The translations under genes were made by a program, and so were the position numbers. Shown piece after piece: positions 126 through 5,410 of a stretch of 64,000 bases of DNA. The stretch spans positions 1 through 64,000 of the forward strand of contig JAPLJH010000067.1 of NCBI GenBank assembly GCA_026388695.1, written 5' to 3'. Each line of letters begins with the position of its first letter. Position 1 is the first letter of the stretch. Below the pieces are notes generated by a model. That model made no database searches and was not told the origin of the DNA. It saw only the letters and a list, made by a program, of their open reading frames with translations. This DNA comes from Deltaproteobacteria bacterium (lineage in GTDB: Bacteria; Desulfobacterota; Desulfobulbia; Desulfobulbales; Desulfurivibrionaceae).

Positions 126-2066
126 CTAGCTATTGCAAGCGCCAGTTCGGCCAGCTTCATTTTCCCTGGCGATCAGCGCCGCAAACTCGGGGATTGACAT
201 GGCCGGCAGATTATCACCGTTGCGCAGCCGCACCGTGATCTGGCGCGCCTCCACTTCCTTGTCGCCGATGATCAGCATGTACGGAATCTTCTGCATCTGG
301 GCTTCACGAATCTTGTAATTGAGTTTTTCGTTGCGGATATCTTTTTCAACCCGCACCCCAGACTTGCGCAACTCGGCATACACCTCGTCCGCATAATCGA
401 TCTGGACGTCGGTGATATTCATGATTCTGGCCTGAGTCGGAGCAAGCCACACCGGAAAGGCTCCGGCATAATGCTCGATAAGCACCCCGATAAAGCGCTC
501 CAACGAGCCCATAAGAGCCCGATGGATCATGATCGGCTGATGCTCCTTGCTGTCTTCCCCGATATAGGTCATTTCAAAACGTTCTGGCAGGTTGAAATCC
601 ACCTGAATAGTAGAGCACTGCCAGCTCCGCCCCAAAACATCCTTGATCTTAATGTCGATCTTCGGCCCGTAAAACACCCCTTCGCCAGGGTCAAGCTCGT
701 AGGCCAGGCCCTTTTTCTCCAAAGCCAGCTTCAAAGCAGTGGTAGCCTGATCCCAGTGCTCGTCGCTGCCCACGGACTTCTCCGGCCTGGTGGAAAGATA
801 AACCTCGTAGGACTCAAACCCAAAGGTCTTGAGGATATGCAGATTCAAGTCAAGGATATTGAAGATCTCATCTTCCAGGTGATCGGGCCGACAAAAGATA
901 TGGGCATCGTCCTGGGTAAAGCCGCGAACCCGCATCAGGCCATGCAGGGCGCCGGTCTTCTCAAAACGGTACACCGTGCCCAACTCACACCAGCGCAGGG
1001 GAAATTCCCGATAGCTGCGCTTACGCGTATTATAGATGCCGATATGAAACGGACAATTCATCGGCTTGAGCTGATAGCTCACTTCCTCGATCTCCATGGG
1101 GGAAAACATGTTCTCCCCATAAAAATCGAGATGGCCGCTGGTCTGCCACATATCGCGCTTGGCGATGTGCGGGGTGAACAGCAGCTCGTAGTCGTTTCTA
1201 TAATGTTCTTCGCGCCAGTGATCCTCAATGATCTTCCGGAGCAGCGCGCCCTTGGGCTGCCAGAGGATCAGACCCGGTCCGACCTGGTCGGAAACGGCAA
1301 ACAGCTCCAGTTCCTTGCCAAGCTTCCGGTGATCGCGTTTCTTGGCCTCTTCAATCTGAAAGAGATAGGCCTTCAAATCCTTGGGGTCAAAAAACGCCGT
1401 GCCATAAAGGCGCTGGAGCATCTTTCGATTTTCATCGCCACGCCAGTAGGCGCCAGCCAGCTTGATGACCTTGACGGCCTTCAGCCAGCCCGCATGGGGC
1501 AAATGCGGCCCACGGCAAAGATCAACGAAATCTCCCTGCCTATACAGCGAAACCGTCTCGGCGCCCAGATCCTTCAGTAGCTCAACCTTGTAGGACTGGC
1601 CGCTCTTTTCAAAAAACTCAATCGCCTGGGCGGAAGACATGGTCTCCCGAGAAAAAGGAGCGGCGAGAGCGACAAGCTCCTGCATTTTTGTTTCAATCAG
1701 GACAAGATCATCGGGAGTGAACGGCTCCGCGCGGTCAAAATCATAGTAAAACCCATCGGCGATGGCCGGCCCGATGGCAACCTGCACCTCCTTGCCGAAC
1801 AGAGCAAGGACAGCCTCGGCCATGACATGGGCCGCACTGTGCCGAAGAATCTCCAAGGCCTCGGGACTATCGACGGTTATGGACGCAAAGGCCGCATCGG
1901 CATCGATGGGCGCAGAAAGGTCCACCAACCGATCATCCAACCGAGCGGCAATGGTCTGCTTGCGCTCCTTGTTAGAAACCAGCTCTTTCAGAGCCTCGGC
2001 CACTGTGGTTCCCGCAGGGAACATTTTTTGCTCCCCGGAAGGAAGGGTAAGAGATATTTCCGTCAT
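126..2066 (-). CDS. thrS: threonyl-tRNA synthetase
   Basis: Class II aminoacyl-tRNA synthetase that charges tRNA-Thr in the cytoplasm; 646 aa, normal for bacterial ThrRS. An N-terminal TGS domain (about residues 1-63) is followed by the editing domain with the HSAAH zinc/catalytic motif and CRGPH. The catalytic core has MNCPFH (zinc Cys), motif 2 (YRFEKTG), RGFTQDD and motif 3 (GSLERFIG), then the anticodon-binding domain. The ATG at 2066 is chosen because it starts directly at the TGS domain; the reading frame extends 25 codons upstream with no conserved sequence. It is followed by infC and preceded by tRNA-Val. Confidence 0.97.
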   Translation of the reverse strand: MTEISLTLPSGEQKMFPAGTTVAEALKELVSNKERKQTIAARLDDRLVDLSAPIDADAAFASITVDSPEALEILRHSAAHVMAEAVLALFGKEVQVAIGPAIADGFYYDFDRAEPFTPDDLVLIETKMQELVALAAPFSRETMSSAQAIEFFEKSGQSYKVELLKDLGAETVSLYRQGDFVDLCRGPHLPHAGWLKAVKVIKLAGAYWRGDENRKMLQRLYGTAFFDPKDLKAYLFQIEEAKKRDHRKLGKELELFAVSDQVGPGLILWQPKGALLRKIIEDHWREEHYRNDYELLFTPHIAKRDMWQTSGHLDFYGENMFSPMEIEEVSYQLKPMNCPFHIGIYNTRKRSYREFPLRWCELGTVYRFEKTGALHGLMRVRGFTQDDAHIFCRPDHLEDEIFNILDLNLHILKTFGFESYEVYLSTRPEKSVGSDEHWDQATTALKLALEKKGLAYELDPGEGVFYGPKIDIKIKDVLGRSWQCSTIQVDFNLPERFEMTYIGEDSKEHQPIMIHRALMGSLERFIGVLIEHYAGAFPVWLAPTQARIMNITDVQIDYADEVYAELRKSGVRVEKDIRNEKLNYKIREAQMQKIPYMLIIGDKEVEARQITVRLRNGDNLPAMSIPEFAALIARENEAGRTGACNS

Positions 2067-2204
2067 GGTTGTTAAGATCAGCCTTTCCACAAATGCACAA
2101 ACAAAAACAAGCACATTGACCAGGTCAATCTGCCTGCACAATAAGGTTTGGCAAAAACTTCCCCTGCCAAACCTCGCGACGCCACGATATCCGTGAATGT
2201 TCTC

Positions 2205-2281
2205 TGGTAGGCGCGGGCGGATTCGAACCGCCGACCTCTTGCGTGTCGGGCAAGCGCTCTAACCAACTGAGCTACGCGCCT
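2205..2281 (-). tRNA. tRNA-Val(GAC)
   Basis: 77-nt cloverleaf with encoded CCA. It has a 7-bp acceptor stem (AGGCGCG/CGCGCCT), D stem GCTC/GAGC, anticodon stem CTTGC/GCAAG, T stem GGCGG/CCGCC, TTCGAAT loop and discriminator A. The 7-base anticodon loop is CCGACAC, so the anticodon is GAC (Val). Position 33 is C, where nearly all elongator tRNAs have U. It lies 138 bases upstream of thrS on the same strand. Confidence 0.93.
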
Positions 2282-2561: not shown

Positions 2562-3170
2562 TCAGGAACAGGTGTCTTTCCGGGATTCAATGGCCCGACT
2601 AAGCGTAAGTTCATCGGCATACTTGATGTCCATGCCCATGGGAATCCCGCAGGCCAACCTGGTCACTTTGACCGCGACCTCCTCCTGCAACCGTTTGATG
2701 AGATAGGCAGCCGTCGCCTCCCCCGGCACCGTGGAACTGGTGGCGATCAGCACCTCCCGCACCCGCTGCTTCTTGATCCTTTCCAGCAGGGCATCCGCCT
2801 TGATTTCCTCCGGGCCGATCCCATCCATAGGAGAAAGCACCCCATGGAGAATATGGTACTTGCCCTTAAAGGCCCCGGTTTTCTCAATGGCCATGAGATC
2901 CGCAGATTCCTCCACCACGCAGACCAACCCGGCATCACGCTCCGAGTCCATACAGATGGCGCACGGATCGGTCTCGGCAAAGGCGAAACAGCTACCACAT
3001 AACCTGATGGTCCGGTGCAGCTCCCCGAGATCCCTGGCCAGGCTCTGGGCTTCACTGGCGGGCCGACGCAGGATATGGAGAGCCAGCCGGGTCGCGGTTT
3101 TCATGCCGATCCCCGGTAGGCGGTTCAGGTCGGCAATGAGACGGCTCAAAGCCGGAGGAACGACGTTCAT
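2562..3170 (-). CDS. recR: recombination mediator protein RecR
   Basis: 202 aa, the normal length. RecR works with RecO/RecF to load RecA on gapped DNA. Visible features in order are a helix-hairpin-helix (LNRLPGIGMKTATRLA), a four-Cys zinc finger (CGSC...CAIC), a Toprim domain starting VVEESADLMAIE and containing HGVLSPMDGIGP, and the C-terminal ACGIPMG segment. The ATG at 3170 (MNVVPPALSRL) starts at the conserved N-terminus; a start six codons upstream is possible. It is the last gene of a dnaX-ebfC-recR operon, an arrangement conserved across bacteria. Confidence 0.96.
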   Translation of the reverse strand: MNVVPPALSRLIADLNRLPGIGMKTATRLALHILRRPASEAQSLARDLGELHRTIRLCGSCFAFAETDPCAICMDSERDAGLVCVVEESADLMAIEKTGAFKGKYHILHGVLSPMDGIGPEEIKADALLERIKKQRVREVLIATSSTVPGEATAAYLIKRLQEEVAVKVTRLACGIPMGMDIKYADELTLSRAIESRKDTCS

Positions 3171-3265
3171 ATGGAGAAAAACTCCCAAGGCAAAAAGGCA
3201 AGCGGGAAAAAAGCAACCCCTGGCAGCCGCATTTTTTTAGGCTTCATCTTCCTTGCGCCTTTCAC

Positions 3266-3580
3266 CTAAAACATCCCAGGAATCTTGACCCCACCGGTGA
3301 GCTTTGCCATCTCGGCATCGCTCATCGCCTGGGCCTTGCGCATGGCCTCGTTCACTGCGGAGATCACAAGATCCTGGAGCATTTGCGGGTCCGCCGGGTC
3401 CACCACTTCCTTGTCAATGGTCAGACTAATGAGTTCATGTCTGCCATTCACCGTAGCACTCACCATGCCGCCACCCACCGTGGCGCTGACCTGCTTACCC
3501 GCCAACTCCCCCTGCTTCTCCGTCAGGCGTTGCTGGAACTGCTGCGCCTGTTTCATCATCTGCTTCATATCCATCCGCAT
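3266..3580 (-). CDS. ebfC: nucleoid-associated protein, YbaB/EbfC family
   Basis: 104 aa. Small dimeric DNA-binding protein of the YbaB/EbfC family, with a basic, Gln/Met-rich N-terminal helix (MKQMMKQAQQFQQRL), a central beta sheet (VSATVGGGMVSATVNG) and a C-terminal helix with the typical VNEAMRKAQ segment. It lies between dnaX and recR on the same strand, the standard order, which supports the call. In other species it binds DNA broadly; a specific role here is not shown. Confidence 0.95.
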   Translation of the reverse strand: MRMDMKQMMKQAQQFQQRLTEKQGELAGKQVSATVGGGMVSATVNGRHELISLTIDKEVVDPADPQMLQDLVISAVNEAMRKAQAMSDAEMAKLTGGVKIPGMF

Positions 3581-3667: not shown

Positions 3668-5410
3668 TTACTTGGACCCGGTCCTGATACTACCGACCTG
3701 TCCACCAAAAATCTCAGTGGTCATCTGCACCATGGGGTCATTGGCCAAAATCCGCCGCTCGACAAGCAGACTCTCCGCCTCGTCACCGCCGCCATCGTCG
3801 GTTGCCTGTGTGCCGCGCACCTTGAAGACAACCCGAAAATCGTGCTGGAAAAAATCCAGGACAAAAGCCTGCAAGAGCTTCAAATTGTCATGCTCCTGCA
3901 GCAGCTTGCAGTCAGACGAGTCATCAAACTTCAGAACCAGCTCGCCCCCTTCATCACGGGCGGAGGCGCACAGCTGTAATACCGGAGCCATCCAGCGCTT
4001 GCGCTTTTTGACATACTCAATGAACTCCCCCCAATGCCTTTTTACTTCCCGACCGGTAGGGAAAACGGCGGCCGAGGGAGATGATTGCCCGCTTTGCTCT
4101 TGGGAGGCCGTGGCTTCAGGCGCTATTTCATTTTTTTTTTGTTCCGGAAGCGGCCCGGAAGAAGAGTTAATCGCTGGCCAGGGCATAGACCTAGGCGCGG
4201 TTGGCTCCGGTTCCGCCGTGGAAATCGCCAGCGAGACTGGCCCCCCGACGCCCTGCGGCAGGGAAACGGCCCCAGCCAGCAATCCGTCAAGCCGTCCCAG
4301 CAGGGCAGCCGTCGGCACAATCTGTCCGGCCTGGGTGGCCCGGACAAAGGCCATCTCCAAGGCAAGGCGGGGTCGGGACGAGTATTGCATCTCCTCACTC
4401 CCCTTCAACAGCAGTGAAAAATATTGGTAAAGCGTTTCCTGGCTGACCCCTGAGGCAATATCCTTGATGGCCGCTAGTTCCTGGTCGGAAAGATCCAGCA
4501 GCTCCTCGGGCCGAGCCTTGACCTTAGCAATCAGCAAGGCCCGGAAAAATCCCAACAAATCGTTGGCAAAACGCTTGAGATCCATGCCCGCGGCTTGACC
4601 CTGCTCAAAGATATCAAGGCAACCGGCCAGATCCGCCGCTAAAAGCGCGCGGGCCATGTTTTCATAGATTCGGCGGTCAACCAGCCCCAGAACCTCAGCC
4701 ACATCCCCATCGCTGATTTCATCTCCGCCGAAGGAAAAGAGCTGATCAAGAAGACTTAAGCCATCCCGCACACTGCCTTCGGCCTCCCGCCCGATCATCT
4801 CCAAGGCACGCTGGGACATAACAACCTTTTCCGCTTCGGCGATCCTGGCAAAAAACGCAACCAGCTCGACAAAGGGAACACGCTTAAGCTCATAGCGCTG
4901 ACAGCGGGAGAGGATGGTGATGGGAATCTTGTGCAGCTCGGTGGTGGCGAACATGAAATAGACATGGGCGGGCGGCTCCTCCAGAGTCTTCAACAGGGCG
5001 TTGAAGGCCTCGGTGGTGAGCATGTGCACTTCATCGATGATGATGATCTTGTAGCGGCCCTTGGCAGGAAAAAAACGGATGTTTTCCTTGAGTTCGCGAA
5101 TCTCCTGAATGCCGCGATTGGAGGCGCCGTCGATCTCATGCAGGTCCATGGCGTTGCCGGCCATGATCTCCAGGCACGACTCGCACTGATCGCAGGGCAC
5201 ATCCGGCTCGCCCTGCTGGCAGTTGAGCGCCTTAGCCATGAGCCGCGCCAGGGTGGTTTTGCCAACCCCGCGCACCCCGGAAAAAAGCATGGCATGAGCA
5301 ACCCGGTTACGGGTGAGCGCATTACGCAAAGTGCGCACCACGGCCTGCTGACCGACAACCTCATCGAAATTCTGGGGACGCCATTTTCTGGCTAAAACCA
5401 GGTAGGACAT
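3668..5410 (-). CDS. dnaX: DNA polymerase III subunit gamma/tau
   Basis: 580 aa clamp-loader ATPase. Visible are the Walker A loop (GVRGVGKTT), a zinc module (C...CDQCESC), Walker B (IIIDEVHML), sensor 1 (ATTELHKIP) and the SRC arginine-finger motif (ILSRCQRYEL). A low-complexity Pro/Ser/Glu linker (about 385-450) is followed by a tau-like C-terminal domain. Codons 424-427 are CAA AAA AAA AAT, inside a run of ten A. A slip by one base either way meets a stop within a few codons (TGA or TAG), giving a product of about 427-428 aa, close to E. coli gamma (431 aa). First gene of the dnaX-ebfC-recR operon. Confidence 0.97.
   Translation of the reverse strand: MSYLVLARKWRPQNFDEVVGQQAVVRTLRNALTRNRVAHAMLFSGVRGVGKTTLARLMAKALNCQQGEPDVPCDQCESCLEIMAGNAMDLHEIDGASNRGIQEIRELKENIRFFPAKGRYKIIIIDEVHMLTTEAFNALLKTLEEPPAHVYFMFATTELHKIPITILSRCQRYELKRVPFVELVAFFARIAEAEKVVMSQRALEMIGREAEGSVRDGLSLLDQLFSFGGDEISDGDVAEVLGLVDRRIYENMARALLAADLAGCLDIFEQGQAAGMDLKRFANDLLGFFRALLIAKVKARPEELLDLSDQELAAIKDIASGVSQETLYQYFSLLLKGSEEMQYSSRPRLALEMAFVRATQAGQIVPTAALLGRLDGLLAGAVSLPQGVGGPVSLAISTAEPEPTAPRSMPWPAINSSSGPLPEQKKNEIAPEATASQEQSGQSSPSAAVFPTGREVKRHWGEFIEYVKKRKRWMAPVLQLCASARDEGGELVLKFDDSSDCKLLQEHDNLKLLQAFVLDFFQHDFRVVFKVRGTQATDDGGGDEAESLLVERRILANDPMVQMTTEIFGGQVGSIRTGSK
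4131..4141 (-). promoter_or_regulatory. A10 slippery run in dnaX (candidate gamma-subunit frameshift or slippage site)
   Basis: On the coding strand C is followed by ten A and then TGAAATAG. Frame zero reads Q K K N E I. With eleven A, or a -1 ribosomal shift, it reads Q K K K stop (TGA). With nine A it reads Q K K M K stop (TAG). Homopolymer runs in dnaX cause transcriptional slippage in Thermus, and A-rich heptamers cause ribosomal frameshifting in E. coli. I see no clear stimulatory hairpin or upstream Shine-Dalgarno element. Confidence 0.65.

What the first reader, a model, noticed from the sequence alone, without database searches (positions are those of the whole stretch)
2205..2281. 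tRNA-Val(GAC) carries C33 instead of the near-universal U33
The anticodon loop reads CCGACAC between intact stems CTTGC and GCAAG, so position 33 is C. U33 makes the U-turn of the anticodon loop and is almost universal in elongator tRNAs. The other three tRNAs in the window have U33.
Basis: partly seen in the sequence, partly recalled or inferred. Interest (0 to 1): 0.5.

Follow-up and report, generated by a model that had tools for sequence, protein, structure and literature searches.

The report
Valine tRNA lacking the universal U33
The valine tRNA gene in this window really carries C at a spot where almost every tRNA has U; the change is neither an error nor a decayed gene, because the same change recurs in this one kind of valine tRNA across many bacterial phyla.

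Summary
Window 2205-2281 (-) is an intact tRNA-Val(GAC) with loop CCGACAC, so position 33 is C; the other 39 tRNAs that ARAGORN found in the assembly have U33. It is not a sequencing error: 16 of 17 genomes of the genus, own included, carry the identical 77-nt gene, while flanking DNA is only 72-75% alike. It is not a pseudogene beside a normal copy: in 35 of 35 C33 genomes searched, the only GAC gene found was the C33 one. It sits between recR and thrS, the same place as the U33 version in related families. C33 is not peculiar to this genome: a named-genome scan gave 118 C33 tRNA-Val(GAC) genes from 21 named phyla before hitting its limit, and C33 is the majority form in sampled Planctomycetota (68 of 103 genes). 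Of 234 C33 tRNAs found in 1058 genomes with any anticodon allowed, 193 are Val-GAC. Best reading: a working tRNA whose U33 requirement is relaxed because its codons can also be read by the U34 valine tRNA. No RNA was examined, so C-to-U editing remains open.

The parts
2205..2281 (-). tRNA-Val(GAC), 77 nt with encoded CCA end, C33
   Evidence: ARAGORN; RF00005 71.4 bits; loop read; identical in 16 of 17 genus genomes
2248..2248 (-). position 33 of the tRNA (C on the minus strand), the base in question; coordinate worked out by hand from the sequence
   Evidence: sequence; loop CCGACAC (loop spans 2243-2249)
126..2141 (-). thrS (threonyl-tRNA synthetase) downstream of the tRNA; the ORF runs from a TTG, the likely start MTEISL.. 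lies 25 codons in; name recognised from its sequence, not from a family search
   Evidence: ORF; next to tRNA-Val(GAC) in C33 and U33 relatives
2562..3188 (-). recR upstream of the tRNA (name recognised, not searched)
   Evidence: ORF; synteny
3266..3580 (-). ybaB (name recognised, not searched)
   Evidence: ORF; synteny
3668..5410 (-). dnaX (name recognised, not searched)
   Evidence: ORF; synteny

Best explanation
This is the genome's ordinary, working tRNA-Val(GAC), next to thrS, with C33 encoded and probably kept as C in the mature tRNA. It reads GUC and GUU. Loss of U33 weakens the U-turn, but this is tolerated, and in some lineages perhaps favoured, for two reasons: GUU/GUC can also be read by the U34 valine tRNA (superwobble, helped here by cmo5U34), so the G34 tRNA of a four-codon box is auxiliary; and the GAC anticodon makes two G-C pairs, so it can afford a weaker loop. 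Shown: the base, intact structure, purifying conservation, single gene, in-place orthology with U33 relatives, recurrence across phyla, strong bias to Val-GAC, cmoB present in this genome. Inferred: that the RNA keeps C33, that the tRNA decodes, and that redundancy is the cause.
For: Intact tRNA, 77/77 identity within the genus against about 72-75% in flanks. Only GAC gene matched in each of 35 C33 genomes, with TAC and CAC isoacceptors U33 wherever matched. Same recR-tRNA-thrS place as U33 genes of other families. C33 in 118 of 118 named-genome loci, 61 other tRNAs on those loci all T33. In 1058 genomes of four phylum samples 234 C33 tRNAs: 193 GAC(Val), 13 GGT(Thr), 10 GGC(Ala), 5 TAC(Val), 3 CAT, 2 GTG, and one each CGC, CGT, CGG, TGG, TGT, GCC, GCG, GAG; so nearly all are four-codon-box tRNAs and mostly G34. 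A published survey calls G34 tRNAs of four-fold boxes auxiliary (PMC4041420, passages), and plastid trnV-GAC is non-essential because tRNA-Val(UAC) superwobbles efficiently (PMC3499367, passages). CmoB over cut-off in this genome and 7 relatives. GUY is 53% of 1034 valine codons in 32 window ORFs, so the tRNA has work to do.
Against: CmoB was found in only 3 of 32 C33 genomes reached through named loci, so cmo5U34 itself does not explain C33; C33 and U33 relatives alike have CmoB. If redundancy alone were the cause, Ala-GGC, Thr-GGT and Gly-GCC should lose U33 as often as Val-GAC, and they do not (10, 13 and 1 against 193; though the pattern does not reach every tRNA equally). A merely tolerated change sits badly with C33 being the majority form in sampled Planctomycetota. 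C33 also occurs in a few mandatory tRNAs (TAC, CAT, GTG, TGT, TGG: 12 of 234). The Planctomycetota and Actinomycetota counts are swollen by common descent and are not independent events.
Confidence: 0.55

Rival explanations
1. C33 is encoded but deaminated to U33 (or on to pseudouridine) after transcription, so the working tRNA has a normal U-turn. A cytidine deaminase acting on the anticodon loop would do it, as TrcP does at C32 of Vibrio tRNA-Tyr.
For: Bacterial C-to-U editing in the anticodon loop exists: TrcP edits C32 (PMC9553926, abstract, one section and passages). The perfect conservation of a normally disfavoured base would be explained.
Against: It would need an editor in scattered lineages of 21 named phyla, lost and gained with the base. 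The paper describes TrcP homologs as relatively uncommon and names no Desulfobulbales or Planctomycetota in the section read. The linked change at position 38 suggests that the loop adapts to a real C33. TrcP or other editors were not searched for in this genome.
Confidence: 0.12
2. C33 is an adaptive part of a retuned anticodon loop: it weakens or reshapes the loop of a strong-anticodon tRNA for accuracy, and stops U33-A37 and U32-A38 pairing from closing the loop where 38 is A. A37 of Val-GAC is not expected to carry a bulky modification (recalled).
For: A38 goes with C33: 48 of 68 against 2 of 35 U33 genes in Planctomycetota (Fisher 7e-11) and 3 of 4 against 0 of 99 in Bacteroidota (not corrected for shared descent). 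In RNAfold a UUGACAA loop collapses to a three-base loop, UCGACAA keeps five bases. Anticodons with two or three G-C pairs make up 225 of 234 C33 tRNAs (counted by eye).
Against: The window's own loop has C32 and C38, where no such pairing exists and the predicted fold is the same with U33 or C33. The 33-38 link may be inherited rather than selected repeatedly.
Confidence: 0.25
3. The tRNA does not serve translation: a decaying gene, or one kept for another job such as tRNA-dependent amino-acid transfer.
For: Non-U33 tRNAs with odd roles are known, such as bacterial tRNA-ProX with A33 (PMC11415595, passages).
Against: All stems paired, CCA encoded, high covariance score, no change in 77 nt across the genus, and it is the only GAC gene matched in each genome searched.
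Confidence: 0.05
4. Sequencing, assembly or contamination artefact.
For: The window comes from a fragmented draft assembly (114 contigs).
Against: Same base in 16 of 17 genus genomes, including one in 3 contigs (G007) and one 99% complete (G010), and in 118 of 118 named-genome loci.
Confidence: 0.01

Closest known systems
Canonical bacterial tRNA-Val(GAC) with U33
   Same: Same gene place (recR - tRNA - thrS) in relatives, same acceptor stem, anticodon and encoded CCA
   Different: C33 in place of U33; in this order the C33 type also has stem CTTGC and mostly a longer D loop (77 against 75 nt)
Sulfolobales (archaeal) tRNA-Cys(GCA) with C33
   Same: Clade-wide C33 in an elongator tRNA (PMC7668247, passage)
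   Different: Archaea, cysteine, one clade; that paper could not isolate the tRNA
Eukaryotic initiator tRNA-Met with C33
   Same: C33 natural and functional (PMC9023262, passage)
   Different: An initiator, which starts in the P site; ours is an elongator
TrcP C-to-Psi editing of C32 in Vibrio tRNA-Tyr
   Same: A genomic C in a bacterial anticodon loop that ends up as pseudouridine in the RNA (PMC9553926)
   Different: Position 32, not 33; editing of our tRNA was not tested
Bacterial tRNA-ProX (A33) and mistranslating tRNA-Ser (G33)
   Same: Natural loss of U33 (PMC11415595, passages)
   Different: Those are mistranslating tRNAs; ours has an ordinary Val anticodon and no sign of changed identity

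Membership tests
tRNA (Rfam RF00005), isotype Val(GAC) | Cloverleaf over the curated score with anticodon GAC | tested here: met
   71.4 bits against cut-off 29; ARAGORN
tRNA (Rfam RF00005), isotype Val(GAC) | U33 (near-universal in elongators) | tested here: not met
   C33; so it is a variant within the isotype, not a typical member in this respect
tRNA (Rfam RF00005), isotype Val(GAC) | Charged with valine and decodes GUU/GUC | not testable with these tools
   Needs RNA
Auxiliary tRNA (G34 of a four-codon box, in the sense of PMC4041420) | A U34 isoacceptor exists that could read its codons | tested here: met
   tRNA-Val(TAC) with U33 in close relatives G006, G007, G010; not seen in the incomplete own assembly
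Auxiliary tRNA (G34 of a four-codon box, in the sense of PMC4041420) | Gene can be deleted | not testable with these tools
   Shown for plastid trnV-GAC by others (PMC3499367, passages)
tRNA edited C to U in the anticodon loop (TrcP-like) | RNA base differs from the gene | not testable with these tools
   No RNA data held
tRNA edited C to U in the anticodon loop (TrcP-like) | Editor gene in the genome | not tested
   No TrcP sequence was searched
tRNA pseudogene | Broken stems, drift, or a second intact copy | tested here: not met

The most novel reading that the evidence does not exclude
U33, taken as universal in bacterial elongator tRNAs, has been given up repeatedly and stably in one isoacceptor, tRNA-Val(GAC), across at least 21 named phyla, becoming the majority form in sampled Planctomycetota, as part of a coordinated redesign of the anticodon loop (C33 with A38), or with a still unknown C33-to-U33 editor. 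Either way the U-turn rule has a natural, anticodon-specific exception class in bacteria.
Probability: 0.35. Interest if true: 0.7.

Novelty: new variant of a known kind. Interest (0 to 1): 0.55.

Why it matters
U33 is treated as an invariant that makes the anticodon U-turn and is required for efficient decoding; a eukaryotic tRNA survey suggests that exceptions are mostly pseudogenes (PMC9023262, passage). A natural set of many bacteria with C33 in one tRNA, including named strains such as Lysinibacillus fusiformis, Pedobacter antarcticus and Conexibacter arvalis, turns the question of what U33 is needed for into a direct experiment, and bears on how far superwobble frees other tRNAs to change.

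Tried and rejected
Phage relatives of the tRNA: 148 phage records match at 60-90% identity, none nearer; no sign of a phage origin.

cmo5U34 as the reason for C33: CmoB is in this genome and 7 relatives, C33 and U33 alike, but over cut-off in only 3 of 32 other C33 genomes. Rejected as a general cause.

G137 (family f12) as an independent origin in this order: its C33 gene has the anticodon stem and D loop of a Geobacteraceae gene (L111) and its ThrS lies on a branch of 2.48, so the contig is probably foreign to that assembly. I discount it; with it the order has 35 of 257 genomes with C33, without it 34 of 256.

Loop collapse by U33-A37/U32-A38 as the cause in the window's own tRNA: rejected there, because 32 and 38 are both C.

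Literature: nine searches in the open-licence PMC library listed no paper that I could see to be about C33 in bacterial tRNA-Val; subscription papers and tRNA databases such as GtRNAdb were not available, so it may be known there. The 2026 survey of 42,109 genomes (PMC13092985) has no occurrence of C33, U33 or 'position 33' in its main text.

Rows dropped: of 16 C33 genus loci, L008 and L013 were left out of the flank comparison for short flanks; 54 of 58 loci went into the ThrS tree (L008, L013 and L184 lack enough ThrS, L209 had no GAC gene called).

Full report
What is there. Window 2205-2281 on the minus strand is a complete tRNA-Val(GAC). Its anticodon arm reads CTTGC-CCGACAC-GCAAG, so position 33 (window base 2248) is C. 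RF00005 gives it 71.4 bits, the seventh best of 41 matches in the assembly. The assembly has 2.58 Mb in 114 contigs and is about 87% complete. ARAGORN finds 40 tRNAs in it; 39 have U33 and only this one has C33. No tRNA-Val(TAC), Ala, Ile or Trp was among them, which I take as incompleteness.

Not an error. The 77-nt gene is identical in 16 of 17 genomes of the genus (own included); the 17th, G003, is 75% complete and gave no such gene. It is also identical in G018 (another genus of the family) and G045 (another family). In 14 genus loci compared pairwise (91 pairs) the tRNA is 100% identical, the 80 bases upstream 74.8% and downstream 71.7% on average. A named Desulfobulbaceae assembly (L155) has the identical gene, which places the window in or near Desulfobulbales.

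Not a spare copy. Thirty-six genomes were searched with a pattern for valine tRNAs: 32 that hold C33 loci from other groups, three close relatives (G006, G007, G010) and one U33 relative (G019). In all 35 C33 genomes the only GAC gene matched had C33, and every TAC or CAC gene matched had U33. The three close relatives each have GAC(C33), TAC(U33) and CAC(U33). The pattern needs a standard D arm and a five-base variable loop, so an odd second copy could be missed.

Its place. The gene lies in the order dnaX - ybaB - recR - tRNA-Val(GAC) - thrS (names recognised from the sequences). The U33 genes of other families of the order sit in the same place where the contig is long enough, so C33 and U33 are forms of one gene. 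On a ThrS tree of 54 loci the base needs at least 5 changes, of which supported branches force 3; one of the five concerns the doubtful G137. In this order C33 goes with stem CTTGC (G137 apart); U33 goes with other stems, CTACC most often. In family f1 the U33 genus g4 groups with the C33 genus g6 beside further C33 lineages. Whole-gene replacement is therefore as likely as a point change.

How widespread. In the order 35 of 257 genomes have C33: f1 19 of 27, f5 10 of 10, f15 4 of 5, f7 1 of 3, f12 1 (G137, probably contamination). That scan searched for C33 Val-GAC, so it shows reach, not frequency. Frequencies from sampled phyla (every sample contains the C33 genome it is centred on): Bacteroidota 4 of 103 GAC genes, Planctomycetota 68 of 103.

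Which tRNAs. With any anticodon allowed, C33 was found in 22 of 247 genomes of the own phylum (23 tRNAs), 4 of 299 of the phylum of G514, a Neptuniibacter (4), 104 of 216 Planctomycetota (109) and 90 of 296 Actinomycetota (98). Together 234 tRNAs: GAC 193, GGT 13, GGC 10, TAC 5, CAT 3, GTG 2, and one each of CGC, CGT, CGG, TGG, TGT, GCC, GCG, GAG. Only one of the 98 Actinomycetota rows had an imperfect stem (TGT). The pattern reaches only some tRNA kinds: 8 of 40 in the own genome, among them Phe, Asn, Thr, Arg and Val. Within its reach, G34 tRNAs that are sole readers (Phe, Asn, Ile) gave no C33.

Loop partners. A38 is linked to C33: 48 of 68 C33 against 2 of 35 U33 genes in Planctomycetota, 3 of 4 against 0 of 99 in Bacteroidota. 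These tests treat genes as independent, which they are not. RNAfold closes a UUGACAA loop to three bases but leaves five in UCGACAA. The window's loop (C32, C38) is outside this effect.

How it most likely works. A published survey calls G34 tRNAs of four-codon boxes auxiliary, because the U34 isoacceptor can supplement them (PMC4041420, passages). In plastids trnV-GAC is dispensable and tRNA-Val(UAC) reads the box efficiently (PMC3499367, passages). The C33 set falls almost wholly in four-codon boxes, mostly G34 tRNAs, with Val-GAC far ahead. I therefore think that C33 is tolerated because a weaker U-turn costs little here, with a strong anticodon helping. CmoB is present in this genome and 7 relatives but in only 3 of 32 other C33 genomes, so one particular U34 modification is not the cause. 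GUU and GUC make up 53% of valine codons in 32 window ORFs, so the tRNA is unlikely to be idle. U33C gives a mutant phenotype in a yeast tRNA-Gln test (PMC3664417, passages), which speaks for a cost unless something compensates.

What stays open. No RNA was examined. Editing of C33 to U, known at C32 from TrcP (PMC9553926), is possible but needs an editor in many phyla. The dominance of C33 in sampled Planctomycetota is more than tolerance easily explains; retuning of the loop is the rival I take most seriously.

Comparison with what is known. Natural C33 is reported in Sulfolobales tRNA-Cys (PMC7668247, passage) and eukaryotic initiator tRNA (PMC9023262, passage); A33 and G33 in mistranslating tRNAs (PMC11415595, passages). 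I found no report of C33 in bacterial tRNA-Val in nine searches of the open library.

Noticed in passing
G1194, G1222, G1257, G1300 and 9 further Actinomycetota genomes: tRNA-Thr(GGT) with loop TCGGTAA, C33, in 13 of 296 genomes; 10 tRNA-Ala(GGC) genes with C33 in the same sample. C33 is thus not confined to valine.
   Followed up: partly
G259, G286, G322; G1209, G1354: tRNA-Val(TAC) with loop CCTACAA, C33, in five genomes; this is the mandatory valine tRNA, so redundancy cannot explain these.
   Followed up: no
G1392, G1456: Gene with anticodon GTG (His) and loop CCGTGGC, C33, in two Actinomycetota genomes; a mandatory tRNA.
   Followed up: no
G137:C134:2239-2287 (locus L191): Contig with a Geobacteraceae-like C33 tRNA-Val and a very divergent ThrS in a 63% complete assembly of this order; probably contamination.
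   Followed up: partly
own assembly, contig ends (L034/L035, L039/L040, L047/L048): tRNA-Phe, Cys and Gln each occur twice, identical, all six within about 50 bases of a contig end; probably repeats at which the assembly broke rather than extra genes.
   Followed up: no
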